Of a DNA stretch of 64,000 nt, positions 11,489-62,256 are shown piece after piece; the first letter of the stretch is position 1, and each line of letters opens with the position of its first letter. The position numbers and the translations under genes were made by a program. The notes beneath the pieces were generated by a model that did not search any database, was not told the DNA's origin, and worked only from the letters and a program-made list of their open reading frames with translations. Origin of the DNA: an uncultured Alphaproteobacteria bacterium (GTDB taxonomy: Bacteria > Pseudomonadota > Alphaproteobacteria > JAPOUT01 > G958296285); the NCBI GenBank assembly GCA_958296285.1, contig OY282459.1, forward strand, positions 570,367 to 634,366, in the 5' to 3' direction.

Positions 11489-11818
11489 GCTCCCGTGAAG
11501 GGGGGTTTGGGGGGCTAGCCCCCCAAAAAAACCAAGGCGGGCGCAAGCCCGCCTATCGGTTGGGGGGTGGGGTGGGAAAAAAGCTTTTCCGAGCAAGCGC
11601 AGCGCAGCGAGGAAAAGCGACCCACCCCCCAACCGCTCCTGCTAGAAGAGCTCTTGCGAGCAGGGGGGTCGGCGGGCTTTCTCGCGGGCTTGCGCTGTCG
11701 CGCTACGCCCGCTTCGTTTCGCCACGCCCGCCGACTATTCGGGGGGGATTCCCCCCGACCCCCCCTTCTTCGCGGGGGGCTTCGCCCCCCACACCCCCCT
11801 TTACCGGAGTTACCGGAG
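11489..11818. repeat. hairpin cassette copy 1 (between addB and murU)
   Basis: This fills most of the 373-bp gap. It opens with GCTCCCGTGAAGGGGGG and closes with two CCGGAG-type ends. Inside, in order, are: a GGGGGGCTAGCCCCCC edge palindrome; a GGCGGGCGCAAGCCCGCC hairpin beside an A-run (a T-run on the minus strand); a long hairpin with GGTTGGGGGGTGGG / CCCACCCCCCAACC arms; a CCTGCTAGAAGAGCTCTT palindrome; a GTCGGCGGGC / GCCCGCCGAC hairpin; a TCGGGGGGA-type hairpin; and a CTTCG-looped G6/C6 edge hairpin. The murU stop codon (11810-11812) lies inside the right end of the cassette. Confidence 0.9.
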
Positions 11819-12517
11819 CATCCGCCTCGCCGCCCCATAACCCCCCACAGTCCCCGCATGAACCCAACGACCACCCAAAACCCATCCAAAAAGACGACCC
11901 CGCCGCCGAGCCAAATCCCAAACACGCCGCGCCGAAAAAACATCATCACCCACAGATAAAAAAATCTCAGGACAAACCAACTGAACCCCCCCATAAAAAC
12001 TATCCGATACGCCCTCCGCGAAATCTAACCGCCCCGCCCCATCCATAACAAAATCCCCCAAACCCTCATAACCCTCCGCGTAAGACCGCCGCGCCAACAT
12101 CAACAAAACATCCATCCGCGCCGCGTCAAAATGCTCCGCCATGCGCCGAAGCGCATCCGCCTCCTCCCAAAGCGAATCACAATTGCAGACGAAAAAAACC
12201 CGACCCCCAAAAAAAGACGCCGCCAACCTCACGCCCCCCCCCGTCCCCAAAAGACGATCCCGCTCATGCGAGAAAATCAACTCCCGATCCCAATGATCCC
12301 GAATATGAGCCTCCACCCTCTCCGCCTGATGATGAAGATTGACAACCAACCGCTCCACCCCCGCCTCCCGCAAACGCCGCAGCACGGCATCCACCAAAAC
12401 GCCCCCGCCATAAGGCAGCAAAGGCTTCGGACAATCCCGCAAAGGCGGAGAAAGCGCGCGCATCCGCTCGCCCCTGCCGGCGCAAAGAAGAAGCGCGTCT
12501 CGGATATGCCCCGTCAT
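11810..12517 (-). CDS. murU: nucleotidyltransferase, probable N-acetylmuramate-1-phosphate uridylyltransferase
   Basis: This belongs to the sugar-phosphate nucleotidyltransferases: LLLCAGRGERMRALSPPLRDCPKP carries the nucleotide-binding G.G.RM..L..PKP signature near residues 10-32. The 235-residue size and the position directly after an AmgK-type kinase (ATGA overlap at 12514-12517) match the MurU/AmgK route that turns recovered N-acetylmuramic acid into UDP-MurNAc. A mannose-1-phosphate guanylyltransferase is the alternative that sequence alone cannot exclude. The last two codons and the stop (CTC CGG TAA) lie within the terminal repeat of the neighbouring cassette. Confidence 0.82.
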   Translation of the reverse strand: MTGHIRDALLLCAGRGERMRALSPPLRDCPKPLLPYGGGVLVDAVLRRLREAGVERLVVNLHHQAERVEAHIRDHWDRELIFSHERDRLLGTGGGVRLAASFFGGRVFFVCNCDSLWEEADALRRMAEHFDAARMDVLLMLARRSYAEGYEGLGDFVMDGAGRLDFAEGVSDSFYGGVQLVCPEIFLSVGDDVFSARRVWDLARRRGRLFGWVLGGRWVHAGTVGGYGAARRMLR

Positions 12518-13593
12518 GCGCCCTCCCCGAAAAACTCAGCCAGACGAAAGCGAAGCCAGCCCCTCAAATTCGCCAAAGACTCATGCGCCAAATTGCGCCT
12601 CATATAAAAAAGAAGACGCGGAATATGCCGCATGTAAAGAGGCTTGCCGTCCCGAGCCTTCAGCCGCGCGAAAAGACCAAGAATCCGCGCCGCTCTCTGC
12701 GCGCCGAAGATGGCGTATGTCCTCAAAAAAGCGCGTCCGTTCTTGCCGTCTATTCCCATCCGCGCCATATAAAGATCGCGCATCTCGCGCTCCCGCGCCT
12801 CCCCTACGTCCAAGCGCGCGTCCTGAAGGAGCGAGACCAAATCATAAGCCGGAGGGCCAAGGATCGCGTCCTGAAAATCCAAAATCCCGACTCGCATCAG
12901 ATCCTTCTCATGCGGCATCCAGATCAGATTCGGCGTGTGATAATCGCGCAGCAGAAGGGCGGAGAAGCCCCAATCCAACTGCGGCAGAATCCCGCGCCAA
13001 ATGGCGTTCCAATCCTCCATCAGAGACGGCGAGTTGTCCGCCATAAACCATTCGGGAAAAAGACTGAGTTCGGTCAAGAGGATCGCCTCGTCAAAGATCG
13101 GCAGGCGGTGTCGGGTTTGGCGGTCAATGGGGAGAGTTTTCGGCGCGTCTTCCTGATGGAGGCGCGCCAAGACTTTCACCGCCGCGCGATAGAGCGTGTT
13201 GGGGTTTCGTTTTTTGAGGGCGGAGGCGTAATCTTCGCTGCCCAGATCTTCCAACAGCAGCAAGCCTTGACTTTCGTCATGCGCCAAGATTTCGGGCGCG
13301 TGGAGGCGGAGGCTTCTCAAATAGCGCGCGATGGCGAGGAAGGGTTGAGGATTCCCCGCCAAGCCGACCTTGCGGCTGTAATCTTCGGCGTCTTGATAGG
13401 GGGGGAGCGGGGGCCATTCCATCAGGATGGCGGTTTTGTTGTTCATGGCGAGGCGGGAGTAGCGTCTTTGCGAGGCGTCGCCGGGCAGAGCGCGGCGGGC
13501 GGCGTTTTTCCAGCCTGCGCGGGCGAGGAAGGTTTGGAGGGCCGGTTGGTGGTTTTGAGGTTTTTTGGGGTTTTCTGTTGGCGTTTTTTTCAT
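12514..13593 (-). CDS. amgK: aminoglycoside-phosphotransferase-fold sugar kinase (AmgK-like)
   Basis: A 359-residue kinase of the APH/choline-kinase fold. LLLRDYHTPNLIWM near residue 212 is the catalytic HxDxxxxN-like loop, here with RDYHTPN, and GILDFQDAILGPPAYDLVSL near 237 is the metal-binding DFxD segment. Next to murU and tsaE, the expected role is anomeric phosphorylation of MurNAc/GlcNAc in peptidoglycan recycling. The N-terminus (MKKTPTENPKKPQNHQ) is a poorly conserved basic extension, so a later start is possible. It overlaps murU by four bases. Confidence 0.85.
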   Translation of the reverse strand: MKKTPTENPKKPQNHQPALQTFLARAGWKNAARRALPGDASQRRYSRLAMNNKTAILMEWPPLPPYQDAEDYSRKVGLAGNPQPFLAIARYLRSLRLHAPEILAHDESQGLLLLEDLGSEDYASALKKRNPNTLYRAAVKVLARLHQEDAPKTLPIDRQTRHRLPIFDEAILLTELSLFPEWFMADNSPSLMEDWNAIWRGILPQLDWGFSALLLRDYHTPNLIWMPHEKDLMRVGILDFQDAILGPPAYDLVSLLQDARLDVGEAREREMRDLYMARMGIDGKNGRAFLRTYAIFGAQRAARILGLFARLKARDGKPLYMRHIPRLLFYMRRNLAHESLANLRGWLRFRLAEFFGEGA

Positions 13594-13614
13594 GGCTGTC
13601 GCGCTCTGATGGTT

Positions 13615-14073
13615 TTATGCCGCGATATTTTTGGCGAGTTTTTGGATTTTGTTTTCCCAGCTTTTGCCGAGCGGGTTGATATGGATGATTCGGGAGTCGT
13701 TTTTGGGCGTGATTTCCAATCGGAGATGGAGTCGGGTTTCGGGGATTGTTTCGCCCATGCGCTCGGGCCATTCTATGAGGAGGGTTTCGGCGTCTTCCAG
13801 TCCGAGTTCGGCGATTTCGGATAGGTTTTGGATTCGGTAGAGGTCTATGTGGGAGAGTTGGAATTTTGGGAGGTTGTAGTTTTGGACGAGGGTGAAGGTT
13901 GGGCTTGGGATTTGTCCTGTTTCGCCGAGTTCGCGGAGGATAGCGCGGGCGAGGGTTGTTTTTCCGCTTGCGAGGGGTCCTTCCAGGGCGATGGTGTCGC
14001 CTTTTTCTAGGAGTGGCGCGAGGGTTTTGCCGAGTTTGATGGTTTCGGCTTCGTTTTGGAGGTTGAGTTTCAT
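13615..14073 (-). CDS. tsaE: tRNA threonylcarbamoyladenosine biosynthesis ATPase TsaE
   Basis: TsaE is the small P-loop ATPase that supports TsaB/TsaD in making t6A37 in ANN-decoding tRNAs. The Walker A is EGPLASGKTT (residues 31-40); SPTFTLVQNY and HIDLYRI are the next conserved blocks, and LLIEWPERMG follows. Length 152 is normal. It is the first gene of the minus-strand tsaE-amgK-murU run (21 bp to amgK). A cassette begins 46 bp upstream of its start codon. Confidence 0.95.
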   Translation of the reverse strand: MKLNLQNEAETIKLGKTLAPLLEKGDTIALEGPLASGKTTLARAILRELGETGQIPSPTFTLVQNYNLPKFQLSHIDLYRIQNLSEIAELGLEDAETLLIEWPERMGETIPETRLHLRLEITPKNDSRIIHINPLGKSWENKIQKLAKNIAA

Positions 14074-14119
14074 GATGGTGAAGAGGATAGCGCGATTGGG
14101 GAATCTCTAAAAGACAGGG

Positions 14120-14322
14120 GAGCTCCCTGACGGGGGGTGTGGGGGGCGAAGCCCCCCGCGAAGAAGGGGGGGATCGGGGGGGAATCCCCCCCGAATAGTC
14201 GGCGGGCGTGGCGCAACGAAGCAAGCGAGGCGAGCGTAGCCACTCGTGGCGTAGCGAGACGAGCTTGCGAGAAGCCCGCCGACCCCCCTCCAAGAGCTCT
14301 TGGCGTTCAGGGGACGCAGGCG
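14120..14322. repeat. hairpin cassette copy 2 (upstream of tsaE and the NYN gene)
   Basis: This copy sits between divergent genes. The left terminus is GAGCTCCCTGACGGGGGG, followed by the CGAAG-looped G6/C6 edge hairpin, a [18 protein letters not shown] hairpin and a GTCGGCGGGC..GCCCGCCGAC hairpin whose loop contains the sub-palindrome GCCACTCGTGGC. Then comes a CAAGAGCTCTTGG palindrome, after which the copy stops at CAGGGGACGC without a right edge hairpin, so it is truncated. The rest of the gap (14323-14504) is the leader of the NYN gene. Confidence 0.85.
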
Positions 14323-14426
14323 TGAGAACAGATTTGAGTCCAGAAAACATAGAAAAAGAAAAAGGAAAAAATAGGAAAAAACTCTTTACACGCGCATCGC
14401 GCAGCTCCATCTTATCGGCAACCCGC

Positions 14427-14485
14427 CTTGTCATTCAATGGCAGGGCAGAAGACCTCCCCCTACCCAAAGGGGGGGGTCTTTCTT
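14427..14485 (+). terminator. two leader hairpins, the second terminator-like, before the NYN gene
   Basis: The first hairpin is CCTTGTCA-TTCAA-TGGCAGGG (eight pairs including two G-U). It is followed at about 14449-14485 by AGACCTCCCCC..GGGGGGGTCT and then TTCTTT. This is a convincing intrinsic terminator placed 20 bp before the ribosome site of the next gene. It could end a short RNA starting near 14380-14410, or attenuate the NYN gene. I recognise no known riboswitch in the sequence. Confidence 0.65.
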
Positions 14486-14504
14486 TGTAAGAAGGATCGC
14501 GCCC

Positions 14505-15155
14505 ATGCAAGACAAACCGCGCGTGAATGTTTATGTTGACAGTTTCAATCTTTATTTCGGCCTTCTCAAAGATCAGCATGGCTGCCGTTGGTTAAGTTTG
14601 ACATCTTTGAGCCAAACTCTATGCGGACAGCTCCCCCAACTTCGTCAAGACATGGCGCCGCGCATCCAATCCATCTACTTCTTTACCGCTCATGTTCGCG
14701 CGACAAATGAGGATCCTAAAAAAAACAATCGCCAAAGGGTCTATTTGCGCGCTCTCAAACATGACGGCGTGCGCGTGATTGTTGGATATTTTTCGCGGAA
14801 TCGTCGCAAGATGAGAGCTGTCGATTCCAAGAGATCTGTTAGAGTTTGGCATACGGAAGAGAAGGGATCGGACGTGAATTTGGCGACACAGATGGTTCGG
14901 GACGCCGCGAAAGATGAGATGGACGCCGCCATTTTGATCAGCAACGATGGCGACTTTAAAGCGGCGGTCGCTTGCGTGAGACAGGATTTCCAGAAAGATG
15001 TCTATGTTGTAGCCCTGGTTAATAACAGACAGCCTACGCGCGGATTGAAGGAAGCCGCTTCGGGTATCTTGAAGTTGTCACGCCCTCTTGTGAGGAGGCA
15101 TCAGTTTCCTGAAACAATCCCCGGCACGACGATTCGCAAGCCTCCCTCATGGTGA
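14505..15155 (+). CDS. NYN domain (PIN-like) predicted RNase
   Basis: The 216-residue protein fits the NYN/LabA-like branch of PIN nucleases: an N-terminal strand with an aspartate (VNVYVDSFNLYFG, D12), a central KGSDVNLATQMVRDA (D123), and LISNDGDFKAAV (D148, D150), the acidic set that binds metal in this family. I start at ATG 14505, preceded by GAAGGA; the longer frame from 14208 would translate the cassette. It is somewhat AT-richer than its neighbours. A terminator-like hairpin lies in its leader. The target RNA is unknown; relatives occur both as housekeeping RNases and in mobile defence loci. Confidence 0.85.
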   Translation: MQDKPRVNVYVDSFNLYFGLLKDQHGCRWLSLTSLSQTLCGQLPQLRQDMAPRIQSIYFFTAHVRATNEDPKKNNRQRVYLRALKHDGVRVIVGYFSRNRRKMRAVDSKRSVRVWHTEEKGSDVNLATQMVRDAAKDEMDAAILISNDGDFKAAVACVRQDFQKDVYVVALVNNRQPTRGLKEAASGILKLSRPLVRRHQFPETIPGTTIRKPPSW

Positions 15156-15194
15156 TTCGTTAAGAGGCTGCGGTTGCGCATGTGAAGTTTCGGC

Positions 15195-15334
15195 GATGCA
15201 GGGGGGTCGGCGGGCTTCCTCGCCTCGCTACGCTCGGCTTCGGGAAAGCCACGCCCGCCGACCTGTAGCGGCGCTCCGCGCCGCTTGGGTTTTTTTTGGG
15301 GGGCTAGCCCCCCAAACCCCCCTGTCTTTTGGAG
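15195..15334. repeat. hairpin cassette copy 3 (short form)
   Basis: A truncated copy between two plus-strand genes. It starts in the middle of the palindromic module (GATGCAGGGGGG), then has the GTCGGCGGGC..GCCCGCCGAC hairpin, AGCGGCGCTCCGCGCCGCTT followed by a T-run (an intrinsic-terminator shape on the plus strand), the GGGGGGCTAGCCCCCC edge palindrome, and the end CTTTTGGAG. It lacks the left edge hairpin. The ferredoxin reductase ATG follows 30 bp later. Confidence 0.85.
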
Positions 15335-15363
15335 ATTCCTCTAAACCTCTATATTCTAAGCCC

Positions 15364-16584
15364 ATGACCGCAGGAACCATCATCATCGGCGCAGGACAAG
15401 CAGGAGCCGAAACCGCCTTCGCCCTCCGAAAACTCGGATACCAAAAACCTATCCACATCATCGGAAAAGAACCCTCGCTCCCCTACCAACGCCCGCCACT
15501 CTCCAAAACCTTCCTCAAAGGCGAAATTGCCCCCGAAAGACTCCTCTTCAAACCCGCCGAAATCTATCAGCGCGAAAAAATCCGCGTCCTCACAAAAACC
15601 GAAGCCGCCAAAATCCTCCGCGAAAAAAAAACGCTCCGCCTCAAAAATGGCGAAAATCTCGCCTATGACCATCTCGTCCTCGCCACAGGCGGCGAAGCGC
15701 GACAACTCAACATCCCCGGCGCGTCCCTGCGAGGCGTCCATCTCCTGCGGAAGCGCGAGGATTCCGAAAGCCTCCGCGAAGCCGCCGAGAAAGAAGGACG
15801 CATCGTCATTGTCGGCGGCGGCTATATCGGATTGGAAGTCGCGGCGAGCCTCAAACAAAAAGGCTGTGACGTAATCCTCTTAGAAGCCGAGCCGCGTCTG
15901 CTCTCGCGGGTCGCCGCGCCTGAAATCTCCGCCTTCTTTCAAGAGATTCACGAAGCGCATGGCGTTGAGATTCGCTGCGGCGCGCGTCTCGTCTCCCTTG
16001 AGGGGCGCGATCATGTGGAGGCGCTGCGTCTTGACGGCGGCGAGATTATCAAGACGCCGCTCGCTCTTATTGGCGTGGGTCTTTGTCCGAATACGGGGCT
16101 TGCCGAGGAGGCGGGGCTTCTTGTGGCGGACGGCATTACGACCGACATTCATTCGCGGACGAGCGATCCTTTCATTTTCGCGGCGGGCGATTGCGCGAAT
16201 CATCCGAGTCGGATTTATCGGCGGCGGCTGCGGTTGGAATCGGTTCAGAATGCCATCGCGCAGGCGCAGAGCGCGGCGGCGACGATATGCGGTTGTGAGA
16301 AGCCTTATATTGAGGTTCCGTGGTTTTGGTCGGATCAGTATGATGTCAAGTGGCAGATGGCGGGGTTAAGCGAGGGGTATGATGGGAGGGTTGTTCGGGG
16401 CGAGATGGGGGGTCGGCGGTTTTCGGTTTTTTATTTGCGCGGGGGTTTTTTGATTGCGGCGGATGCGATTAATAGCGCGGCGGATTTCATGGCGGCGCGG
16501 TTGGCGATTGCGGCCGGGGTGTTTGTGGATATGGGGAGGTTGGGGGATGAGTCTTGTTCGGTGAGGGAGGCTTTGGGGATTTAG
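15364..16584 (+). CDS. NAD(P)H-dependent ferredoxin/rubredoxin reductase (FAD)
   Basis: Pyridine nucleotide-disulfide oxidoreductase of the putidaredoxin-reductase/BenA4 type. It has an FAD-binding GAGQAGAETA at residues 9-18, a conserved PYQRPPLSK segment near 41, an NAD-binding IVGGGYIGLEVAASL near 150, and FAAGDCANHP near 275. It has no redox-active CxxC, as expected for this subgroup. The 406-residue length is typical. It could feed electrons through a ferredoxin to the P450 at 32.4 kb, but no ferredoxin gene is visible here. The upstream frame from 15196 runs through a cassette, so ATG 15364 is preferred. Confidence 0.9.
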   Translation: MTAGTIIIGAGQAGAETAFALRKLGYQKPIHIIGKEPSLPYQRPPLSKTFLKGEIAPERLLFKPAEIYQREKIRVLTKTEAAKILREKKTLRLKNGENLAYDHLVLATGGEARQLNIPGASLRGVHLLRKREDSESLREAAEKEGRIVIVGGGYIGLEVAASLKQKGCDVILLEAEPRLLSRVAAPEISAFFQEIHEAHGVEIRCGARLVSLEGRDHVEALRLDGGEIIKTPLALIGVGLCPNTGLAEEAGLLVADGITTDIHSRTSDPFIFAAGDCANHPSRIYRRRLRLESVQNAIAQAQSAAATICGCEKPYIEVPWFWSDQYDVKWQMAGLSEGYDGRVVRGEMGGRRFSVFYLRGGFLIAADAINSAADFMAARLAIAAGVFVDMGRLGDESCSVREALGI

Positions 16585-16587
16585 CTT

Positions 16588-16903
16588 GCTCCTGTGAAGG
16601 GGGGTCAAGGGGGGCTAGCCCCCCTTGAAAAACCAAGCGGGCGAAGCCCGCTACGGTCGGCGGGCGTGGCGAAACGAAGCGGGCGAAGCGCGACAGCGCA
16701 AGCCCGCGAGAAAGCCCGCCGACCCCCCCCGCTTACAATAGCTCTTGCGAGCAGGGGGCGCGTGGGTGGGTCGCATTTTCTCGTTTCGCTACGCTTCACT
16801 CGCAAATGCTCTTTTCCCACCCACCCACGCGCTTTCGGGGGTTTCCCCCGAACCCCCTTTTTTCAAGGGGGGCAAGCCCCCCTTGACCCCCCTTTTTTGG
16901 AGA
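16588..16903. repeat. hairpin cassette copy 4 (convergent gap)
   Basis: It fills the entire space between the stop of the reductase (16584) and the stop of the convergent fadJ-like gene (16907). The ends are GCTCCTGTGAAGGGGGG and CCCCCCTTTTTTGGAG. Both edge hairpins are of the TCAAGGGGGG..CCCCCCTTGA type. Between them are the AGCGGGCGAAGCCCGCT hairpin, the GTCGGCGGGC hairpin, an AATAGCTCTT palindrome (one base off the usual AAGAGCTCTT) and the GCGTGGGTGGG / CCCACCCACGC hairpin. Confidence 0.92.
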
Positions 16904-16906
16904 AAT

Positions 16907-19105: not shown

Positions 19106-19110
19106 CGGCT

Positions 19111-23212: not shown

Positions 23213-23216
23213 CTTT

Positions 23217-23535
23217 CTCCCGTTGAGGGGGGTTTGGGGGGCTAGCCCCCCAAAAAAAGAGGGGGATCGGGGGGGAATCCCCCCCGAAAGTCGGCGGGCG
23301 TGGCGAAACGAAGCGCACGAAGCGCGAAGCGCAAGTGCGCGAGAAAGCCCGCCGACCTCCCTGCTACAAGAGCTCTTGCGGCAGGGGCGGTTGGGGGGTG
23401 GGTCGCTTTTCCTCGTTTCGCTTCGCTTCACTCGGAAAAGCTTTTTCCCCACCCCACCCCCCAACCGATAGGCTGCCTTCGGCAGCCTTGGTTTTTCAAG
23501 GGGGGCTAGCCCCCCTTGACCCCCCTCAACGGGAG
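23217..23535. repeat. hairpin cassette copy 5 (convergent gap)
   Basis: It occupies the whole gap between two convergent stops (23212 and 23539). The ends are CTCCCGTTGAGGGGGG and CCCCTCAACGGGAG, a perfect terminal inverted repeat. The left edge hairpin is of the TTT..AAA type and the right one of the TCAA..TTGA type. The long internal hairpin has the GGTTGGGGGGTGGG arms shared with copy 1 rather than the GCGTGGGTGGG arms of most copies. Confidence 0.92.
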
Positions 23536-23538
23536 ATT

Positions 23539-26303: not shown

Positions 26304-26393
26304 TGGCGGAGAGGGTGGGATTCGAACCCACGGCGCCCATAAGAGCGCAACGGTTTTCGAGACCGCCCCGTTCGACCACTCCGGCACCTCTCC
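26304..26393 (-). tRNA. tRNA-Ser(CGA)
   Basis: The reverse complement folds into a class II tRNA: seven-pair acceptor stem GGAGAGG/CCTCTCC; D-arm with GGTCGAACGG; anticodon loop CTCGAAA (anticodon CGA, reading UCG); long variable arm; T-loop GGTTCGAATCC; and an encoded CCA end. It lies just after the DUF2806 gene on the opposite strand; tRNA genes commonly serve as insertion sites. Confidence 0.97.
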
Positions 26394-26418: not shown

Positions 26419-26624
26419 GCTCCTGTTAAGGGGGGGGGGCGGGGGGCTAGCCCCGCAAAAAAACAAGCGGCGCGAAGCGCCGCTACAAGTCGCAGAACTA
26501 GGGGAAGTCGGCGGGCTTCCTCGCTCGCTGACGCTCGCTTCGTTTCGCCACGCCCGCCGACTATAGCGGGCTTCGCCCGCTTGGTTTTTTTGGGGGGCTA
26601 GCCCCCCAAACCCCCCTTCACCTC
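26419..26624. repeat. hairpin cassette copy 6 (short form)
   Basis: The left end is GCTCCTGTTAAGGGGGG, followed by a decayed edge hairpin (GGGGGGCTAGCCCCGC), the AGCGGCGCTTCGCGCCGCT hairpin, the GTCGGCGGGC hairpin in reverse, AGCGGGCTTCGCCCGCTT with a T-run, and an intact TTTGGGGGG..CCCCCCAAA right edge. The long GCGTGGGTGGG hairpin and the AAGAGCTCTT module are absent. The copy runs directly into the second repeat family at 26622. Confidence 0.88.
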
Positions 26625-26700
26625 AAGCTTCTATGCATTAGTTCCCCTGCGGCAAAAACACATGCCTATCCATGAAAAAGATGCCTGTCGCGGCAGCGAC
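26622..26700 (-). repeat. second repeat family (R2), copy a
   Basis: Read on the minus strand it begins GTCGCTGCCGCGACAGGC directly after the autotransporter stop codon, continues through ATCTTTTTCAT, has TTGCCGCAGGGGAACTAA, and ends GCATAGAAGCTTGAGGTG next to a hairpin cassette. The same element is found in opposite orientation at 37278-37364. The outer end contains a short hairpin (GTCGC..GCGAC). No open reading frame lies inside it. Confidence 0.85.
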
Positions 26701-31251: not shown

Positions 31252-31557
31252 GCTCCCGTGAAGGGGGGTTTGGGGGGCTAGCCCCCCAAAAAAACCAAGC
31301 GGGCGCAAGCCCGCTATAGTCGGCGGGCGTGGCGAAACGAAGCCGAGCGTAGCGAGGCGAGAAAGCCCGCCGACCCCCCTGCAACGCGAGAACTCTTGCG
31401 AGCAGGGGGCGCGTGGGTGGGGTCGCATTTGCTCGCTCGTTTCACTCGCTTCGCAAATGCTTTTCCCCCACCCCACCCACGCGTTTCGGGGGGATTCCCC
31501 CCGACCCCCCCTTCTTCGCGGGGGGCGTTCCGCCCCCCACACCCCCCTTCACAGGAG
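31252..31557. repeat. hairpin cassette copy 7
   Basis: It lies between the autotransporter promoter region and the 3' end of the enoyl-CoA hydratase (stop at 31569). The left end is GCTCCCGTGAAGGGGGG with a TTT..AAA edge; the right edge is the CGTTCCG variant of the looped G6/C6 hairpin, ending CACAGGAG. The central palindrome is modified to GAGAACTCTTGCGAGCAG. The 247 bp between the autotransporter start and this cassette (31005-31251) are unique sequence in which I see no gene; the autotransporter promoter is expected there. Confidence 0.9.
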
Positions 31558-31568
31558 CAAGTCAAATC

Positions 31569-32453: not shown

Positions 32454-33737
32454 ATGAGCCTTGTCAAAGAAAAACCCTCAACGGATAAGAAAAATCTCGC
32501 CAACGAGATTGTCAGCCCTGCCGTTTATGCCGATGAAGAGCGGCTGCATCGCGCGCTCGCCCGTCTTCGGCGCGAGAGTCCGATTTTTTGGGCAGAGCCG
32601 GACGATTATCGTCCTTTCTGGGCGATCACGAAACACGCCGACATTCTGGAAATAGAGAAGCTCAACGATTTCTTCCTCAACGATCCGAGAACGACTTTGA
32701 TTGATATTCCGACCGAGAAGGGGATCAAGGATTACACAGGCGGCAGCCATATTCTCTTGCGGACGCTTGTTCATATGGACAATCCCGATCACAGAAAATA
32801 TCGCGCGCTGACGCAATCATGGTTCATGCCGCCCAATTTGCGCAAAATTCAAGAGGATGTCGCCAAGATCGCCGCGCGCGCCGTGGATCGCATGGCGGAG
32901 AAGGGCGGCTCGTGCGATTTCGTTCAAGATGTGGCGGTGTGGTATCCGTTGCAGGTGATCATGTCCATTCTTGGCGTGCCTCAGAAGGATGAGCCTTTCA
33001 TGCTCAAACTGACGCAGCAGCTTTTCGGCACGACCGATCCGGAGATGCGGCGCGGGCGCGAGCGTGATCTTTCCGAGACGCTGGACATGGATGTGGTGCA
33101 GGATTTTATCAACTATTTCACCGCCATGACTGAGGATAGGCGCAAGAATCCTAAAGATGATGTGGCGACGGTCATTGCGAATGCCCAGATTGACGGCGCG
33201 CCGATTGGTCATTTGGAGGCGATGTCTTATTACATCATCATTGCGTCTGCCGGGCATGACACGACCAGTTCGGCGACTGCCGGCGGCATGTTGGAGCTCA
33301 TTCGCAATCCTGATGAGATGCGGAAGGTTAGGGAGGATCGCTCTTTGATTCCGAAGATGTTGGAGGAGTGTTTTCGGTGGGTTTCGCCGGTGAAGCATTT
33401 TTTCCGCACGCCGATTGAGGATTATGAGATTGGGGGCGTCAAGATTAAGAAGGGGGAGAGCGTATTTTTGTCTTATCCGTCTGGGAATCGTGATGAGGAT
33501 GTTTTTGCGGATTCCTTTTCGTTTCGGGCGGACAGGGATCCGAATCGGCATTTGGCGTTTGGACATGGGGCGCATATATGTTTGGGGATGCATTTGGCGC
33601 GGATGGAGATGGCGGCGTTTTTTGACGCGTTGTTGGAGAGGGTTGGGGAGATTGGTTTGGATGGGGATCCGGAATGGGTTGAGTCGAGTTTTGTGAGTGG
33701 GTTGAAGCACATGCCGGTGCGTTTCAAGCTCCTTTAA
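32454..33737 (+). CDS. cytochrome P450
   Basis: A soluble bacterial P450 of 427 residues. Oxygen-activating I-helix ASAGHDTTSSA near residue 266, K-helix ExxR (EECFRW) near 307, and heme ligand loop FGHGAHICLGMHLAR near 372 with the cysteine. It has no membrane anchor or fused reductase, so it needs a ferredoxin and a reductase such as the one at 15364. Substrate cannot be deduced; neighbours of acyl-CoA metabolism suggest lipid, terpenoid or steroid chemistry. I start at ATG 32454 behind GGAGGATCGGAA. The stop codon is within the end of a cassette (CTCCTTTAAGAGG). Confidence 0.94.
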   Translation: MSLVKEKPSTDKKNLANEIVSPAVYADEERLHRALARLRRESPIFWAEPDDYRPFWAITKHADILEIEKLNDFFLNDPRTTLIDIPTEKGIKDYTGGSHILLRTLVHMDNPDHRKYRALTQSWFMPPNLRKIQEDVAKIAARAVDRMAEKGGSCDFVQDVAVWYPLQVIMSILGVPQKDEPFMLKLTQQLFGTTDPEMRRGRERDLSETLDMDVVQDFINYFTAMTEDRRKNPKDDVATVIANAQIDGAPIGHLEAMSYYIIIASAGHDTTSSATAGGMLELIRNPDEMRKVREDRSLIPKMLEECFRWVSPVKHFFRTPIEDYEIGGVKIKKGESVFLSYPSGNRDEDVFADSFSFRADRDPNRHLAFGHGAHICLGMHLARMEMAAFFDALLERVGEIGLDGDPEWVESSFVSGLKHMPVRFKLL

Positions 33738-34036
33738 GAGGGGGGTCAAGGGGGGCTTGCCCCCCTTGAAAAAAGGGGGTTCGGGGGAAACCCCCGAAGA
33801 GTCGGCGGGCGTGGCGAAACGAAGCGAGCGTTAGCGAGCGAGAAAGCCCGCCGACTTCCCTGCTTACAAGAGCTCTTGGCGTTCAGGGGGCGCGTGGGTG
33901 GGGTCGCATTTGCTCGCTCGTTGCCCTCGCTTCGCAAATGCTTTTTTCCCACCCACCCACGCGTTTTCGGGGGGATTCCCCCCGACCCCCCCTTCTTCGC
34001 GGGGGGCTTCGCCCCCCACACCCCCCTTCACCTTCA
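33728..34036. repeat. hairpin cassette copy 8 (convergent gap)
   Basis: Lies between the P450 and the convergent pdhC. Its left terminus, GCTCCTTTAAGAGGGGGG, contains the P450 stop codon; the right edge ends CACACCCCCCTTCACC seven bases before the pdhC stop. The left edge is a TCAAGGGGGGCTTGCC type and the right a CTTCG-looped type. A TTCGGGGGAAACCCCCGAA hairpin replaces the TCGGGGGGAATCCC form found elsewhere. Confidence 0.92.
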
Positions 34037-37277: not shown

Positions 37278-37364
37278 GTCGCTGCCGCGACAGGCATCTT
37301 TTTCATAGACAGGCATTTTGGATTTGCCGCAGGGGAACTAATGCATAGAAGCTGAAGGTGAAGG
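37278..37364 (+). repeat. second repeat family (R2), copy b
   Basis: Plus-strand copy of the element at 26622-26700, starting GTCGCTGCCGCGACAGGC 24 bp upstream of the pdhA start and running into a hairpin cassette through GCATAGAAGCTGAAGGTGAAGG. Compared with copy a, the ends are nearly identical and a few bases differ around the middle. The two copies are inverted and enclose the 10.6-kb block from the autotransporter to pdhA. Confidence 0.85.
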
Positions 37365-37666
37365 GGGGTGTGGGGGGCGAAGCCCCCCGCGAAAAGGGGG
37401 TTCGGGGGAAACCCCCGAAAGCGCGTGGGTGGGTGGGAAAAGAGCTTTTGCGAAGTGAGCGTAGCGAACGAGCAAAAGCGACCCACCCACGCGCCCCCTG
37501 CTAGAAGAGCTCTTGCGAGCAGGGGGGTCGGCGGGCTTTCTCGCGGGCTTGCGCTGACGCGCTTCGCCCGCTTCGTTTCGCCACGCCCGCCGACTATTCG
37601 GGGGGATTCCCCCCGACCCCCCCTTTTCTCAAGGGGGGCAAGCCCCCCTTGACCCCCCTTTTTGCA
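37351..37666. repeat. hairpin cassette copy 9 (upstream of the atp operon)
   Basis: Sits between divergent pdhA and atpH. The left edge is a GTGTGGGGGGCGAAGCC hairpin preceded by GCTGAAGGTGAAGG, and the right edge a TCAAGGGGGGCAAGCC type. The GCGTGGGTGGGTGGG hairpin, the AGAAGAGCTCTT palindrome, the GTCGGCGGGC hairpin and a TCGGGGGGATTCC hairpin follow in order. A promoter for atpH must lie either inside it or in the 74 bp between it and the ATG. Confidence 0.9.
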
Positions 37667-52174: not shown

Positions 52175-52189
52175 CCTTAGGAGGGTTTC

Positions 52190-53005: not shown

Positions 53006-53007
53006 AC

Positions 53008-53343: not shown

Positions 53344-53345
53344 AG

Positions 53346-53651: not shown

Positions 53652-53707
53652 CGCTGAGTCTCGCTCTCATCACAGAATTGGTTTGGTCTCAACCGAGAGG
53701 AAATGAA

Positions 53708-54241: not shown

Positions 54242-54251
54242 AGCCTTTTTC
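54220..54251 (+). terminator. terminator-like inverted repeat after the GIY-YIG-like gene
   Basis: GAAAAAGG and CCTTTTTC flank an inner GGCTTTTAAAGCC; the hairpin spans the gene's stop codon and reads into a T-run. With A and T runs on both sides it may act in both directions. It marks the end of the AT-rich block. Confidence 0.55.
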
Positions 54252-54265
54252 AATGGAGGTCTCAT

Positions 54266-54724: not shown

Positions 54725-54725
54725 A

Positions 54726-55094
54726 ACTCCCCGTGAAGGGGGGTCAAGGGGGGCTAGCCCCCCTTGAAAAACCAAGCGGGCGAAGCCCGCTATGGTCGGC
54801 GGGCGAGAGCGAGACAAAGTCCACAAGCCCGAAGGGCGCAGTGAAACGAAGCGGGCGAAGCCGAAGGCAAGCCCGCGAGAAAGCCCGCCGACTTCCCTGC
54901 TAAAAGAGCTCTTGCGAGTAGGGGGCGCGTGGGTGGGTGGGAAAAGAGCATTTGTTCGTTTCGCTACGCCACGAGTGGCTTCGCTTCACTCGCAAATGCT
55001 CTTTTCCCACCCACCCACGCGTTTTCGGGGGGATTCCCCCCGACCCCCCCTTCTTCGCGGGGGGCTTCGCCCCCCACACCCCCCTCTTTTGGAG
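54726..55094. repeat. hairpin cassette copy 10 (longest copy)
   Basis: At 369 bp this is the longest copy, between two plus-strand genes. The left edge (ACTCCCCGTGAAGGGGGG, TCAA..TTGA type) starts two bases after the DUF4396 stop. The GTCGGCGGGC hairpin has an enlarged loop containing ACAAGCCCGAAGGGCG, shared with copy 12. The GTGGGTGGG hairpin has the loop palindrome GCCACGAGTGGC shared in reverse with copy 2. The right edge is the CTTCG-looped type, ending TTTTGGAG. Confidence 0.92.
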
Positions 55095-55116
55095 AAAATC
55101 TGCTAATCTCAAACCC

Positions 55117-55989: not shown

Positions 55990-55998
55990 GGGCGGCGA

Positions 55999-56189
55999 GC
56001 ATAGAAGCTGAAGGTGAAGGTGAAGGGGGGTTTGGGGGGCTTGCCCCCCAAGAGAAGGGGGGATCGGGGGGAATCCCCCCGAAAAGGTCGGCGGGCGTGG
56101 CGCAACGAAGCGGGCGAAGCCGTAGGCAAGCCCGCGAGAAGCCCGCCGACCCCCCCTGCTCGCAGGAGCTCTTGCGATGCAGGGGGGTC
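55999..56189. repeat. hairpin cassette copy 11 (truncated) with R2 end
   Basis: It starts with GCATAGAAGCTGAAGGTGAAGG, the terminal part of repeat R2, followed by a TTTGGGGGGCTTGCC edge, a TCGGGGGGAATCC hairpin, the GTCGGCGGGC hairpin and the CAGGAGCTCTTGCG palindrome, where it stops. The right half of the cassette is missing. The remaining 112 bp to the next gene end (56190-56301) are unique, without an obvious gene. Confidence 0.85.
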
Positions 56190-56301
56190 CGAAGGAAGAT
56201 CCGCCACTTCAAGAGCCGAAGTCTGTATTTTGGCTGCGAAGATGCTTTTTAAAGGAATTATTGGCCGCCGCTTCCGCGATCGGGGTGAAGCGATTCTCTC
56301 T

Positions 56302-56655
56302 TTAGACAAACGCTCGACATTTGTCTTCATACTGAGCTTGATTCTCTGCCAATAGACTTTTCGCCCTTGTATATCTTATCTCAAGGTCTTTAAGCTCGTT
56401 TTTCACCAAATCTCGCTCCGCTATCTTTTTACTAAGTTCACGCATCTTGCTCCAACGGTCGTTCGGTTTCACAGCCGCATTAATCTCACCTTCAAGGTCG
56501 TTGATCTCGCTATTGAGAATCTTCAGCTTGTTTTCCCTTTGGAAAAATTGTTTAGCAAGGAAATCAACCGTCTCTTCTCCCTTGCGCATGACTTCTAGAA
56601 GTCCGGTGCAAAATTCATGGCGCGGGTCTATCCGCTGTTTTGTCTCGCATGGCAT
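56302..56655 (-). CDS. predicted coiled-coil protein
   Basis: A 117-residue hydrophilic protein. From about residue 35 to 110 it is a heptad-rich alpha helix (FQRENKLKILNSEINDLEGEI... AERDLVKNELKDLEIRYTRAKSLLAENQ). Two cysteines lie near the N-terminus and one near the end. No domain is recognised. It is somewhat AT-richer than average, has AAGGAG nine bases before its start, and stands alone between convergent neighbours. Confidence 0.65.
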   Translation of the reverse strand: MPCETKQRIDPRHEFCTGLLEVMRKGEETVDFLAKQFFQRENKLKILNSEINDLEGEINAAVKPNDRWSKMRELSKKIAERDLVKNELKDLEIRYTRAKSLLAENQAQYEDKCRAFV

Positions 56656-56789
56656 GTCCTAATCTCCTTGTATGGGTGGTCGGCGTCTAGATACGATATG
56701 GAGCTTCTTTTGGGAAAGGGGATAAGTTTTTGGAGAATGCAGAAGAGTCTCGCTTGACATCAGCGCGGTGTTTTTGGCATAGCGGGGTC

Positions 56790-57677
56790 ATGAAAGAGCG
56801 CAGAACCTATCTTCTCTTTCTCGCATTCGTGCTGAGTTTCATGCTTGTCTCTTGCGCTCCTCCCAAAGACCAACTCTCCATCTTCATAGAAAAATTTGAG
56901 ACGATGGAGCGGGTGAAAAAAAATTACGGCAGATGGCAAAACCCCTCCAGCCCCTTCCTGCCCTATCTGAAGAAAGAATTCCACGAGGGACTCACGGCGG
57001 ATCAGAAAAGGCTCTATCACGCCGTGCGCGATCGCTTGGATTGCGACATGGTCGCGCGTTTGGAGCGCGAAGGCTTTCTCAATCTTTATCCTCATCTGGC
57101 ACCCGCCTTTGAGCGCGAGAATGTCGGCGAGGTCTTTTCAAGAATTCTCCGCGATCGCTCTTCGGCTCTGCGCTACTGCGAATATCGCAAGCAGATCAAA
57201 GATGCGCTCTCTTTCGCGGCGCGGCATAAGATCGTCCTTCCTCCATTTCGGGCGGAAGATTTCTTCCGCGAGAATCTTTATAAAACCGACCCTCCTCTGA
57301 CGAGGAAAGAACGATGGATTCTCTATCATCGCTGCTTGGGGATATCGCGCCTTGTTCTTCTCGCGCTTGAAAAGCAATACGCGCCGGCTCTGAGAATTCT
57401 GATCAATTGGATGGGGGCATCCGACTTTATCATTCTTTCGTCGGAGATAGAATTTTCCCTTTATCAGATAGCGGAGGGCGCAGGGCTTTTGTCAGAGGCG
57501 GAAAGAGCGCATAGCCAGACATTGCGAGAGAAAATGATCGTCAAGGATGTTGGACATCAAATCAAGGAGGTTGAATATATTGATCTTAAGCTGCAGCTTT
57601 CTTGGATGAGATCTGTGTTCACCTATTATGGCGGCTGCTCTCATGCTTTTGGCGATCCTCCCCGCCCCCTGGAATGA
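56790..57677 (+). CDS. predicted lipoprotein of unknown function
   Basis: A 295-residue protein starting MKERRTYLLFLAFVLSFMLVSCAPP, a short lipoprotein signal with the LVSC lipobox; C at residue 22 should be acylated. The mature part is helical and charged, with no family I recognise (for example KKNYGRWQNPSSPFLPYLKKEFHEGLTADQKRLYHAVRDRL). The frame extends to 56730, but ATG 56790 places the signal peptide correctly. Composition is intermediate. Confidence 0.75.
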   Translation: MKERRTYLLFLAFVLSFMLVSCAPPKDQLSIFIEKFETMERVKKNYGRWQNPSSPFLPYLKKEFHEGLTADQKRLYHAVRDRLDCDMVARLEREGFLNLYPHLAPAFERENVGEVFSRILRDRSSALRYCEYRKQIKDALSFAARHKIVLPPFRAEDFFRENLYKTDPPLTRKERWILYHRCLGISRLVLLALEKQYAPALRILINWMGASDFIILSSEIEFSLYQIAEGAGLLSEAERAHSQTLREKMIVKDVGHQIKEVEYIDLKLQLSWMRSVFTYYGGCSHAFGDPPRPLE

Positions 57678-57712
57678 AGGCTTGGCTAGACGATCGCGCG
57701 GCATGCTTCAAT

Positions 57713-57840
57713 GCCCGCTTCGTTTCACTGCGCCCTTCGGGCTTGTGGACTTCGTCTCGCCACGCCCGCCGACCATAGCGGGCTTCGCCCGCTTGGTTTT
57801 TCTTGGGGGGCTAGCCCCCCAAACCCCCCTTCACCGGAGC
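57713..57840. repeat. hairpin cassette copy 12 (right half)
   Basis: It starts inside the GTCGGCGGGC module (read in reverse, with the GCGCCCTTCGGGCTTGTGG loop text also present in copy 10), then AGCGGGCTTCGCCCGCTTGG with a T-run, a TTGGGGGGCTAGCC edge and the end CTTCACCGGAG. It ends 15 bp from the 3' end of tRNA-Ala and could terminate the lipoprotein transcript. Confidence 0.87.
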
Positions 57841-57854
57841 GCGGCAGCGACCGG

Positions 57855-57927
57855 TGGAGCCGATCGGGATTGAACCGACGACCTCCTGCTTGCAAAACAG
57901 GCGCTCTCCCAACTGAGCTACGGCCCC
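57855..57927 (-). tRNA. tRNA-Ala(TGC)
   Basis: The reverse complement has the acceptor stem GGGGCCG/CGGCTCC with the G3-U70 pair that identifies tRNA-Ala, D-loop AGTTGGGAGAGC, anticodon loop TTTGCAA (anticodon TGC), and T-loop GGTTCAATCCC. The genomic 3' end continues ACCG, so CCA is not completely encoded, unlike the tRNA-Ser in this window. Confidence 0.96.
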
Positions 57928-57952
57928 CTGTCGCCTCTAACGCCTAAAGCGA

Positions 57953-58801: not shown

Positions 58802-58919
58802 CGCCGCCTCCCTGCTCATTTTGCCTCTTGGCATTTTGCCTCTTGGCATCGGTGAGACTCTCATGCTAGTAATCGCGGCGGAGAATATCAAGTCTAAGGG
58901 ACAAACGGAGGGAGTCGTC

Positions 58920-59801: not shown

Positions 59802-59837
59802 GAACGCCCGCCAAGGGCATCAGAAGGAGGAAACCCC

Positions 59838-61025: not shown

Positions 61026-61346
61026 GCTCCAAAAAAGGGGGGTGTGGGGGGCGAAGTCCCCCGCGAAGAAGGGGGGGGTCGGGGGGAATCCCCCCGAAAA
61101 GCGCGTGGGTGGGGTGGGGAGAAAGCATTTGCGAGCAAACGCAGTGCAGCGAGCAAATGCGACCCCACCCACGCGCCCCCTGCTAGAAGAGCTCTTGTAA
61201 GCAGGGGGGTCGGCGGGCTTCTCGCAAGCTTGCCTCGCTATGCTCGGCTGCGCTTGCTTCGTTGCGCCACGCCCGCCGACTATAGCGGACTTCGCCCGCT
61301 TGGTTTTTTTGGGGGGCTAGCCCCCCAAACCCCCCTTAACGGGAGC
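61026..61346. repeat. hairpin cassette copy 13
   Basis: The left end GCTCCAAAAAAGGGGGG begins directly after the thiolase stop; the edge is a GTGTGGGGGGCGAAGTCC type with one mismatch. The GCGTGGGTGGGGTGGG hairpin, the CTAGAAGAGCTCTTG palindrome and the GTCGGCGGGC hairpin follow, then AGCGGACTTCGCCCGCT with a T-run, a TTTGGGGGG..CCCCCCAAA edge and the end CTTAACGGGAGC. Confidence 0.92.
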
Positions 61347-61360
61347 ATTTGCACCGCCGC

Positions 61361-61376
61361 CCCCCTTCACGGGAGC
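61361..61376. repeat. solitary cassette terminus
   Basis: CCCCCTTCACGGGAGC, the right terminal repeat of the hairpin cassettes without a cassette attached, ending directly at the stop codon of the o-spanin-like gene (61377). It may be the remnant of an excised or nested copy. Confidence 0.75.
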
Positions 61377-61598
61377 TCACCAACCGCACAGCAACTCGCC
61401 AGACCCATTGTGCCAATCTATCTGCCGCAACGTCTCCTCACTATCCAACTCCACATCCCCATGAATCGGACGCGCGACCAAACAAAAAGACTCAGCGCGA
61501 AAACTTCCGCCGCAAGCGCCGACGCTCATCAGGATCACGCAAACGCCGAGACAACCCCCCCAACGCCCGAAGCGATCGCAAAAGAGACCGCGCCCCAT
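61377..61598 (-). CDS. Rz1-like outer-membrane spanin lipoprotein
   Basis: A 73-residue frame whose N-terminus (MGRGLFCDRFGRWGGCLGVCVILMSVGAC) can act as a lipoprotein signal with VGAC as lipobox. The mature part ARPIHGDVELDSEETLRQIDWHNGSGELLCGW resembles small phage-lysis proteins that end with HN..G...CGW. Its first third is embedded, in another frame, inside the preceding i-spanin-like gene, the classic Rz/Rz1 arrangement. The start is uncertain (61598, or a GTG further in). Outer-membrane fusion with its inner partner is the expected role. Confidence 0.62.
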   Translation of the reverse strand: MGRGLFCDRFGRWGGCLGVCVILMSVGACGGSFRAESFCLVARPIHGDVELDSEETLRQIDWHNGSGELLCGW

Positions 61599-61692
61599 CA
61601 GCCCGCGCCCGCGACCAGCCCAAACGAATCCCCAAAAACGCCGCGCCGACAAAAGCCAGCGCCGCCAAACCAAAAGCGAGCGCATAACTCAC
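61492..61692 (-). CDS. small membrane-anchored basic protein, i-spanin-like
   Basis: A 66-residue product starting at a GTG that overlaps the holin-like stop (GTGA, 61689-61692). One membrane helix (YALAFGLAALAFVGAAFLGI) is followed by a very arginine-rich tail (SRARADGARSLLRSLRALGGLSRRLRDPDERRRLRR). An anchored periplasmic or cytoplasmic helix, with the o-spanin frame nested in its 3' half, fits an Rz-like spanin, though it is shorter than typical Rz. It is not recognisable by sequence alone. Confidence 0.58.
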   Translation of the reverse strand: MSYALAFGLAALAFVGAAFLGIRLGWSRARADGARSLLRSLRALGGLSRRLRDPDERRRLRRKFSR

Positions 61693-61862
61693 GCGCCCGA
61701 TCCCTTGTTCGGAAGAAAATACACCAACGCCGCCCCCGCCAAAGACGACACCGCGCCAATAACCTCCGGAGTCGCCCAAGCGCGAACATCCACGCCAAAA
61801 GCCGACAAAATCGTGATCAACGCCGCGATCGCTGCCGCGACAGATTTTTTGTAAGAACCCAT
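61689..61862 (-). CDS. holin-like small membrane protein
   Basis: A 57-residue product, MGSYKKSVAAAIAALITILSAFG.., with two hydrophobic segments (SVAAAIAALITILSAFGV and EVIGAVSSLAGAALVYFLPN) and a basic N-terminus; the VYFLPNK end is common among small phage holins. It has an excellent ribosome site (GAGGAGG, seven bases before ATG 61862). First of a three-gene minus-strand set with spanin-like products, lying between two cassettes; no endolysin is visible nearby. Confidence 0.65.
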   Translation of the reverse strand: MGSYKKSVAAAIAALITILSAFGVDVRAWATPEVIGAVSSLAGAALVYFLPNKGSGA

Positions 61863-61953
61863 CAAAAACCTCCTCATTTCATCATGCGCCCTCAATGCGA
61901 GAGCGCTTCTCACGAGAAGATGGGAAGCCTAAAGAGACGGGGGATAAATTTTT

Positions 61954-62256
61954 CTCTAAAAGGGGGGTCAAGGGGGGCTTGCCCCCCTTGAAAAAAAGGG
62001 GGGGGGGTCGGGGGGAATCCCCCCCGAAACGCGTGGGTGGGTGGGAAAAAAGCATTTGCGAGCGAAGCAACGCGAAGCGAGCAAATGCGACCCACCCACG
62101 CGCCCCTGCTCGCAAGAGCTCTTGGAGGGGGGGTCGGCGGGCTTTCTCGCTCGCTAGCGCTCGCTTCGTTTCGCCACGCCCGCCGACTTTCGGGGGTTTC
62201 CCCCGAACCCCCTTTTCGCGGGGGGCTTCGCCCCCCACACCCCCCTCAACGGGAGC
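61954..62256. repeat. hairpin cassette copy 14
   Basis: It lies between the holin-like gene and the porin (both minus strand). The left terminus is degraded (CTCTAAAAGGGGGG) with a TCAAGGGGGGCTTGCC edge; the right edge is the CTTCG-looped type ending CTCAACGGGAGCC one base from the porin stop codon. The GCGTGGGTGGGTGGG hairpin, the CGCAAGAGCTCTTGG palindrome, GTCGGCGGGC and TTTCGGGGGTTTCC hairpins are all present. The remaining 91 bp (61863-61953) are unique leader sequence. Confidence 0.92.

What the first reader, a model, noticed from the sequence alone, without database searches (positions are those of the whole stretch)
11489..62256. Fourteen copies of a modular intergenic hairpin cassette
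Every few kilobases the non-operon gaps hold a 130-370 bp element (14 copies, about 3.8 kb, near 6% of the window). Full copies have inverted ends (GCTCC(C)GTGAAGGGGGG) and a chain of up to six or seven hairpins. The modules are: an edge G6..C6 palindrome; AGCGGGC..GCCCGCT beside a T-run; GTCGGCGGGC..GCCCGCCGAC; CCTGCT-AAGAGCTCTT-AGCAGG; a long GTGGGTGGG..CCCACCCAC hairpin; and a TCGGGGGG..CCCCCCGA hairpin. Modules are combined differently in each copy, and some copies lack half the chain. The cassettes do not encode a transposase and do not match REP/BIME, ERIC or Rickettsia palindromic elements as I know them. Bidirectional terminators, insulators, MITE-like mobile DNA and structured RNAs are all possible.
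Basis: seen in the sequence. Interest (0 to 1): 0.9.

Follow-up and report, generated by a model that had tools for sequence, protein, structure and literature searches.

The report
Hairpin arms that bracket foreign genes
In the gaps between genes of a small alphaproteobacterial genome lies a family of hairpin-rich DNA elements that occur either whole or split into two halves around low-GC genes, and they are likely a transposase-less mobile wrapper that carries acquired accessory genes, some of them defence-like.

Summary
In detail: 14 pieces cover 3,719 bp (5.8%) of the window. In about half of the genome I found 113 pieces. A full copy is two hairpin arms, type c and type d, joined at a GAGCTC-cored centre (71 full copies); no piece has two c or two d hairpins (0 of 113). 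The copies that "lack half the chain" are the main new point. Most break near the centre, and most occur as left half then right half around 0.3-2 kb of DNA: 12 pairs in the first 822 kb, 4 in regions fetched later. Ten pairs are strictly adjacent; label shuffles give 0.47. The enclosed DNA is low in GC: 12 of 16 segments below 0.52, against 5.4% of control windows. It encodes accessory genes (NYN/HEC-09, Mrr, DNA methyltransferase, XRE, Sel1), and related cargo recurs in separate units. Four of the 14 pieces in the window form two such pairs. Four transposase/recombinase families tested are absent. I read it as a MITE-like family whose arms bracket passenger genes, with terminator-like hairpins facing outward. 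Movement is inferred: no sister genome could be compared, no target duplication was seen, and my written prediction was only partly met.

The parts
11489..11809 (-). full copy (d-centre-c on the + strand)
14121..14317 (+). left half copy (outer end, hairpins a, b, c, centre)
14505..15155 (+). bracketed gene, NYN domain / PADLOC HEC-09 candidate defence protein, 216 aa, GC 0.50
   Evidence: Pfam NYN 3.3e-11 (longer frame), HEC-09 3.7e-41, GC
15193..15325 (-). right half copy (centre remnant, c, b, a, outer end)
16588..16902 (+). full copy c-centre-d
23216..23536 (+). full copy c-centre-d
26419..26625 (.). short copy with both outer ends but no centre and no d arm, next to a tRNA-Ser gene (26304-26393)
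31252..31558 (+). full copy c-centre-d, query of the genome searches
33727..34036 (+). full copy c-centre-d
37352..37663 (-). full copy
54728..55094 (+). full copy c-centre-d
56014..56190 (+). left half copy (a, b, c, centre)
56302..56655 (-). bracketed ORF, 117 aa, coiled-coil-looking, no Pfam family over its cut-off
56790..57677 (+). bracketed gene, 295 aa, lipoprotein-like N terminus (by eye), no Pfam or PADLOC family, GC 0.50
   Evidence: (longer frame)
57663..57840 (-). right half copy (c, b, a, outer end), near a tRNA-Ala gene (57853-57927)
61026..61346 (-). full copy
61954..62256 (-). full copy

Best explanation
The cassettes are copies of one repeat family made of two hairpin-array arms that sit either fused back to back at a GAGCTC-cored centre or split around low-GC accessory genes, and they likely work as the ends of a MITE-like, transposase-less mobile unit that carries those genes. 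Shown: each arm runs from an outer end (GCTCC.GT..AAGGGGGG or another outer block) through hairpins a, b and c or d to the centre; no piece has two c or two d hairpins; half copies mostly break near the centre and mostly come as left half, gene, right half; the enclosed DNA is low in GC and some cargo is homologous between distant units; hairpins followed by T-runs point away from the enclosed gene in 17 of 32 halves and towards it in none. Inferred: that full copies are the cargo-less miniature form; that units have moved by a transposase supplied from outside or since lost; that the outward terminator-like hairpins insulate host genes from cargo transcription; that recombination among copies shuffles the modules.
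For: Pairing: of 113 pieces in the first sample (84 with both ends, 14 left halves, 15 right halves) there are 10 directly adjacent left-to-right pairs within 1.7 kb; label shuffles give a mean of 0.47, maximum 4, 0 of 20,000 reach 10; two more pairs have a small piece inside. Later regions gave four more pairs. Break points: in 26 of the 32 paired halves the best model match ends between positions 130 and 180 of 315, the centre lying near 155 (hand count). Cargo: 13 ORFs chosen by eye (12 pairs plus the unpaired left half 744576) have GC 0.42-0.51 against a median of 0.597 and a 5th percentile of 0.520 for 678 other predicted genes. Segments between halves: 12 of 16 below 0.52 against 5.4% of 1,296 element-free 1-kb windows. 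Families: NYN/HEC-09 3.7e-41, Mrr_cat 1.3e-28, N6_N4_Mtase 6.1e-34, XRE, Sel1, ParA-like. Homologous cargo in separate units: XRE 79% over 399 bp, the match running on into the centre and the c arm; small coiled-coil (CCDC90-like, weak) and Sel1 proteins. Alleles are linked mainly between neighbouring modules, and the modules do not occur outside the elements, apart from one c-core match at the cut end of a stretch. Outward hairpin plus T-run in 17 of 32 halves, inward in 0 of 32.
Against: No transposase found: Y1, serine recombinase, DDE_Tnp_1 and rve absent, and only two tyrosine recombinases, likely XerC/XerD; other transposase families were not tested and part of the genome is masked. No target-site duplication in 9 copies with a plain E1 end on both sides. 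No genome with a longer match to the element was found, so no empty site was seen. Unpaired halves: 5 of 29 in the first sample; 5 more right-end pieces in L178 (two are short both-ended copies on inspection); 3 of 9 in the nine later stretches. Several halves keep a remnant of the opposite arm, so they may be eroded full copies. Most low-GC genes that my gene finder calls are not bracketed. The generic terminator scan of 14000-15500 finds 4 sites against 2.3 in shuffles. The prediction written before the nine stretches was partly met: 3 left-to-right pairs, but two exceeded 1.7 kb (1,715 and 1,993 bp) and only one of three was below 0.52 GC (0.474, 0.530, 0.542).
Confidence: 0.5

Rival explanations
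1. Docking sites used by homologous recombination. The repeats would be universal landing pads, and foreign genes would be swapped in and out by crossovers in the repeated arms, with no transposase of the family's own.
For: Four transposase/recombinase families not found; AddAB present; most non-neighbouring module alleles assort independently; homologous XRE cargo sits beside the same centre junction but with different outer modules; arms of bracketed units are not bound to the c-d rule (10 c..c, 2 d..d, 2 c/d, 1 with a c/d hybrid arm, 1 undetermined of 16).
Against: Does not explain how some hundred copies spread between genes in the first place; no strain comparison.
Confidence: 0.2
2. Selected bidirectional terminators or insulators. 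Copies would be kept at gene borders because they stop transcription on both strands.
For: 77 of 142 full-copy ends have hairpin b followed within 16 bases by T5 or more, read outward; convergent gaps are most often occupied (31 of 90); 0 of 113 pieces overlap a predicted gene by more than 60 bp.
Against: 20 of 80 divergent gaps also hold copies; 65 of 142 ends lack the T-run; a 300-bp chain of six or seven hairpins is far more than a terminator needs; does not explain left/right halves around low-GC genes.
Confidence: 0.15
3. Eroded inverted pairs. A foreign gene happened to lie between two full copies in inverted order and the inner arms were lost by deletion; nothing moves as a unit.
For: Several halves keep a remnant of the inner d arm or match the model well beyond the centre (17386, 328294, 863866, 1243823); pieces are common, about one per 7 kb.
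Against: Break points cluster at the centre (26 of 32 within positions 130-180 of 315); enclosed genes are mostly low in GC while a host-like gene (1241782-1243242, GC 0.591) lies between units; related cargo recurs in separate units.
Confidence: 0.1
4. Family of structured RNAs made from the copies.
For: Strong folding; the d-to-c strand folds on average 3.15 kcal/mol better than the c-to-d strand (sd 6.11, n = 71), a small but consistent difference.
Against: Both strands fold strongly; no clear orientation preference in tandem gaps (20 full copies one way, 17 the other); no Rfam match.
Confidence: 0.03

Closest known systems
MITEs and mobile insertion cassettes (MIC), and TIMEs (Tn3-derived inverted-repeat miniature elements, PMC4133298: abstract and outline seen; MIC from the search listing and recall)
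   Same: Small, inverted ends, between genes; a miniature form beside a form that carries passenger genes; two TIMEs can mobilise the DNA between them.
   Different: Arms are chains of hairpins with exchangeable modules; no parent transposon or transposase found; no target duplication seen; full copies pair unlike arms.
BOX elements of Streptococcus pneumoniae and REPIN/BIME (PMC3049150, PMC3116915, PMC3733652: search listings and starts of abstracts only; module names recalled)
   Same: Interspersed repeats of many copies, palindromic or modular.
   Different: Not known to me as left and right halves around foreign genes; no RAYT-type Y1 transposase found in this genome; sequences were not compared.
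pdif modules of Acinetobacter (PMC6449649: abstract and outline seen)
   Same: Adaptive genes flanked on both sides by recombination sites.
   Different: The centre varies in length and no dif-like site was found with the one pattern used.
Rhizobium intergenic mosaic elements (recalled; not read)
   Same: Alphaproteobacterial mosaic palindromic intergenic repeats.
   Different: Sequence not compared; cargo bracketing not known to me.

Membership tests
MITE / MIC | terminal inverted repeats | tested here: met
   GCTCC.GT..AAGGGGGG ends inverted at both sides; strong conservation starts at that G (67 ends of this type); other outer-end types exist
MITE / MIC | target-site duplication | tested here: not met
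   none in 9 copies with plain E1 ends on both sides; older copies may have lost it
MITE / MIC | parent element with a matching transposase | tested here: not met
   PF01797, PF00239, PF01609, PF00665 absent; other families not tested; genome partly masked and 93.5% complete
MITE / MIC | presence/absence between related genomes | not testable with these tools
   no match in 40 relatives; in 384 other class members only six matches of 22-49 bases
MIC | passenger genes between the ends, no transposase | tested here: met
   16 left-to-right pairs with ORFs between them
REP/REPIN/BIME | RAYT (Y1) transposase in the genome | tested here: not met
   the control search rings in 5 of 14 genomes, E. 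coli and Caulobacter among them
pdif module / Xer-dependent element | 28-bp dif-like site at the cargo border | tested here: not met
   half-centre alleles differ in length; no dif-like match in the genome with one pattern and 2 mismatches
integron gene cassette | integron integrase and attC | tested here: inconclusive
   only two tyrosine recombinases, the one in the window with XerC/D-like domains; attC models not run
intrinsic terminator | hairpin followed by T-run | tested here: met
   77 of 142 full-copy ends, 17 of 32 paired halves outward and 0 of 32 inward; activity not testable

The most novel reading that the evidence does not exclude
A transposase-free gene-exchange platform: hairpin-array repeats spread between host genes act as standard docking sites, and single accessory or defence genes wrapped in half repeats are swapped in and out at the GAGCTC centre by host recombination, each cassette arriving with its own outward terminators.
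Probability: 0.22. Interest if true: 0.9.

Novelty: new variant of a known kind. Interest (0 to 1): 0.7.

Why it matters
If right, a genome in which four common transposase/recombinase families were not found still takes up single foreign genes through a dispersed, hairpin-built wrapper. The half copies would then be a marker that points straight at acquired genes, including unnamed candidate defence genes, in this lineage. It would also link two things usually studied apart: intergenic palindromic repeats and accessory-gene cassettes.

Tried and rejected
That spent the only scan that would have named the organism, so the organism is known only as an alphaproteobacterium (addA_alphas, addB_alphas).

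Insertion of genes into the centre of full c-d copies: would give one c and one d flank only; rejected as the sole route because 12 of the 14 units with two clear arms are c..c (10) or d..d (2).

SbcCD-driven removal of perfect palindromes as the reason for unlike arms: no SbcD found (13 of 14 control genomes ring), so that cause is not supported. Like b alleles (9 of 71, 14.1 expected, P 0.034), like a-plus-b (1 of 71, 5.4 expected, P 0.017) and like half-centres (2 of 69, 6.8 expected, P 0.011) are rarer than chance; like a alleles are not significantly so (20 of 71, 24.8 expected, P 0.13). A first classing of half-centres by raw strings was uninformative (0 of 69, 0.13 expected). Two arm lineages would also explain the unlikeness.

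Apparent absence of copies in 1.62-1.64 Mb: that stretch is all N. Zero counts elsewhere (e.g. 0.44-0.46, 0.69-0.71, 1.06-1.08, 1.31-1.33, 1.50-1.52 Mb) stand but were not followed.

Search for one repeat copy's translation in the protein database: one hit (67% identity, 97% of the query) on a 7,712-base contig whose source is not shown.

Two viral scans for exact element patterns found nothing. Seven paper searches showed no report of this family in the titles and abstract starts listed; subscription papers are not held.
Full report
Observation. No Rfam family reaches its gathering score on them; the only two Rfam matches in the window are tRNAs.

Setting. The window is bases 570,367-634,366 of a 1,733,000-base single-contig genome that is 93.5% complete. 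AddA and AddB are of the alphaproteobacterial type. The 296-base query matches only its own genome among 41 searched. In 385 genomes of the class, with two candidates scored per genome, it matches its own and, over 22-49 bases only, six others. Plasmid and phage records and exact patterns in viral contigs gave nothing.

Anatomy. I held 822,149 bases of this genome after two rounds of stretches. A profile from 49 copies finds 114 clusters, 29,245 bp, merged to 113 pieces. A full copy reads: outer end, GGGGGG, hairpin a, hairpin b, hairpin c, centre, hairpin d, hairpin b', hairpin a', CCCCCC, outer end. Each position has a small set of alleles. For a: TTTG6, TCAAG6, TGTG6. For b: GCGGGC, TCG6, TTCG5 and rarer ones. 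For the half-centre: six main kinds. The class 'full' (71 copies; six more) is defined by a match to more than 270 positions of the c-centre-d model, so its c-d order is partly by construction. The independent checks are that 69 of the 71 show c stem, centre and d stem in order and that none of 113 pieces has two c or two d hairpins. Allele linkage is significant between a and b on either side, between the two half-centres, and weakly between a and the half-centre of the c arm (P 0.0145); of the other eleven pairs one has P 0.054 and ten have P of 0.19 or more. Copies are therefore mosaics. Modules do not occur outside the elements, except one c-core match at the cut end of a stretch. Outer ends come in several kinds. 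One is a longer block ending in TTTTGCCGCAGGGGAACTAA.GCATAGAAGCTGAAGGTGAA, with 42 of 43 matches of its core within 120 bp of an element; a palindrome precedes it in most of the 41 ends listed (by eye).

Half copies. Of the 113 pieces, 14 have only a left outer end and 15 only a right one (classes set by hand). In order along the genome, ten left halves are directly followed by a right half within 1.7 kb. Shuffled labels give 0.47 on average, at most 4, and 0 of 20,000 shuffles reach 10. Two further pairs enclose a small piece (16253/17386 and 350377/351941). One right-to-left neighbour within 1.7 kb was seen. Five halves are unpaired: 744576, 929108 (near a stretch end), 183832, 229817 and 768794. 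With the four pairs found later, 26 of 32 paired halves break between model positions 130 and 180 of 315 (hand count); the exceptions are 814808, 863866, 1247353, 128802, 329652 and 1243823.

Enclosed genes. In the window: a 216-aa NYN protein (PADLOC HEC-09, 3.7e-41) between 14121 and 15325, and a 295-aa lipoprotein-like ORF plus a 117-aa ORF between 56014 and 57840. Elsewhere: Mrr_cat endonuclease, ParA-like ATPase, XRE regulators, UDG-like protein (0.0035, below the cut-off), Sel1-like protein, a TIR-model match (9.2e-12) and small unknowns. A SocA_Panacea protein (8.3e-18) follows the unpaired left half 744576. Thirteen ORFs chosen by eye (12 pairs and that SocA gene) have GC 0.42-0.51; 678 other predicted genes have median 0.597 and 5th percentile 0.520. 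My gene finder is trained on host genes and misses some low-GC genes, so I also used 1,296 element-free 1-kb windows: 5.4% are below 0.52, against 10 of 12 segments between paired halves. Low-GC genes also exist away from half copies: 37 of 686 predicted genes are below 0.515 and most of these are not bracketed. So bracketing is one route, not the only one.

Recurrence. The XRE unit at 16253 and that at 1152619 are 79% identical over 399 bp of cargo, and the match runs through the centre into the c arm. In both, the gene's stop codon abuts the centre, while a, b and the outer ends differ. A small coiled-coil protein (CCDC90-like; the one Pfam match is below the cut-off) recurs in units 16253, 128079 and 1243265 and beside 866742. 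Sel1-type cargo recurs in 356663 and 1247353 at 81% over 432 bp.

Later regions. Beside the window, 634,367-650,000 held one more pair, 637868/639271, around a 385-aa ORF with GC 0.44 and no Pfam or PADLOC match, five further right-end pieces, and a Drt2 reverse transcriptase (1.4e-125). I then wrote a prediction and fetched nine stretches. Result: three left-to-right pairs, at 387, 1,715 and 1,993 bp, with GC 0.530, 0.542 and 0.474. Two missed my distance limit and two missed my GC limit; three of nine halves were unpaired (one, 868274, lies 1.6 kb from a stretch end). Cargo: the coiled-coil protein, a Sel1-trypsin protein, and a 566-aa DNA methyltransferase whose C terminus looks Mrr-like to me. 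The full copies fit the c-d model. Two right-to-left gaps (1,457 and 1,867 bp) hold genes of GC 0.538 and 0.591. In total, 16 left-to-right pairs: 12 of 16 segments below 0.52. Arms: 10 c..c, 2 d..d, 2 c/d, one whose left arm is a c/d hybrid (128079), one whose left arm lacks c and d (814808).

PADLOC check. Of 16 cargo proteins scanned (6, 8, 2), seven match at 1e-5 or better: NYN, Mrr, TIR-like, ParA-like, XRE, methyltransferase and Sel1-trypsin (protease part only). Of eight host genes in the window, one matched (2.6e-9). The sample is small and the ORFs were chosen by eye, so I claim 'some defence-like', not enrichment.

Placement. Copies lie in 31 of 90 convergent, 49 of 492 tandem and 20 of 80 divergent gaps; none of 113 overlaps a predicted gene by more than 60 bp; in tandem gaps 20 full copies point one way and 17 the other.

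Mechanism. The b hairpin is followed within 16 bases by T5 or more, read outward, in 77 of 142 full-copy ends and 17 of 32 paired halves, and inward in 0 of 32. A cargo transcript that leaves the unit would likely stop there; a generic scan of one unit finds 4 terminator-like sites against 2.3 (sd 1.4) in its shuffles. Four transposase/recombinase families are absent; two tyrosine recombinases are present, one in the window with XerC/D-like domains. RVT_1 has one match, the Drt2 protein. SbcD was not found. Mobility rests on copy number, recurrence of cargo and foreign composition; it is not shown.

Comparison. It works like a miniature element with a passenger-carrying form (MIC, TIME). It is not filed as a member of any of these, because a target duplication and a matching transposase were looked for and not found.

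Noticed in passing
L178:6903-8249 (-), G000 641269-642615, 7 kb beyond the window: Drt2-type reverse transcriptase (PADLOC 1.4e-125) with an upstream match to Rfam RT-13 RNA (55.7 bits, below the gathering score of 69.1).
   Followed up: partly
window 35937, 39872, 47885 and elsewhere in the held genome: A second short dispersed repeat: 62 matches to GCGTCTTGACGCGGGG with up to 2 mismatches in 822 kb, none within 60 bp of the hairpin elements.
   Followed up: no
window 26304-26393 and 57853-57927: Two pieces lie within about 30 bases of tRNA genes; some copies elsewhere also look tRNA-adjacent by eye.
   Followed up: no
G000 1500001-1520000 and 1620001-1640000: My gene finder calls only 2 genes in the first stretch; the second is masked, all N.
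   Followed up: no
P0002: A 76% identical NYN protein on a 1,723,605-base contig suggests a related genome that could not be fetched here.
   Followed up: no
L178:12758-14593: MT-A70 and N6/N4 methyltransferase genes next to right-end pieces of the element at 648983 and 649291; no left half recognised.
   Followed up: partly
c and d hairpin loops, e.g. window 14250-14261: A small palindrome, GCCACTCGTGGC, appears inside the loops of several copies, as if inserted.
   Followed up: no
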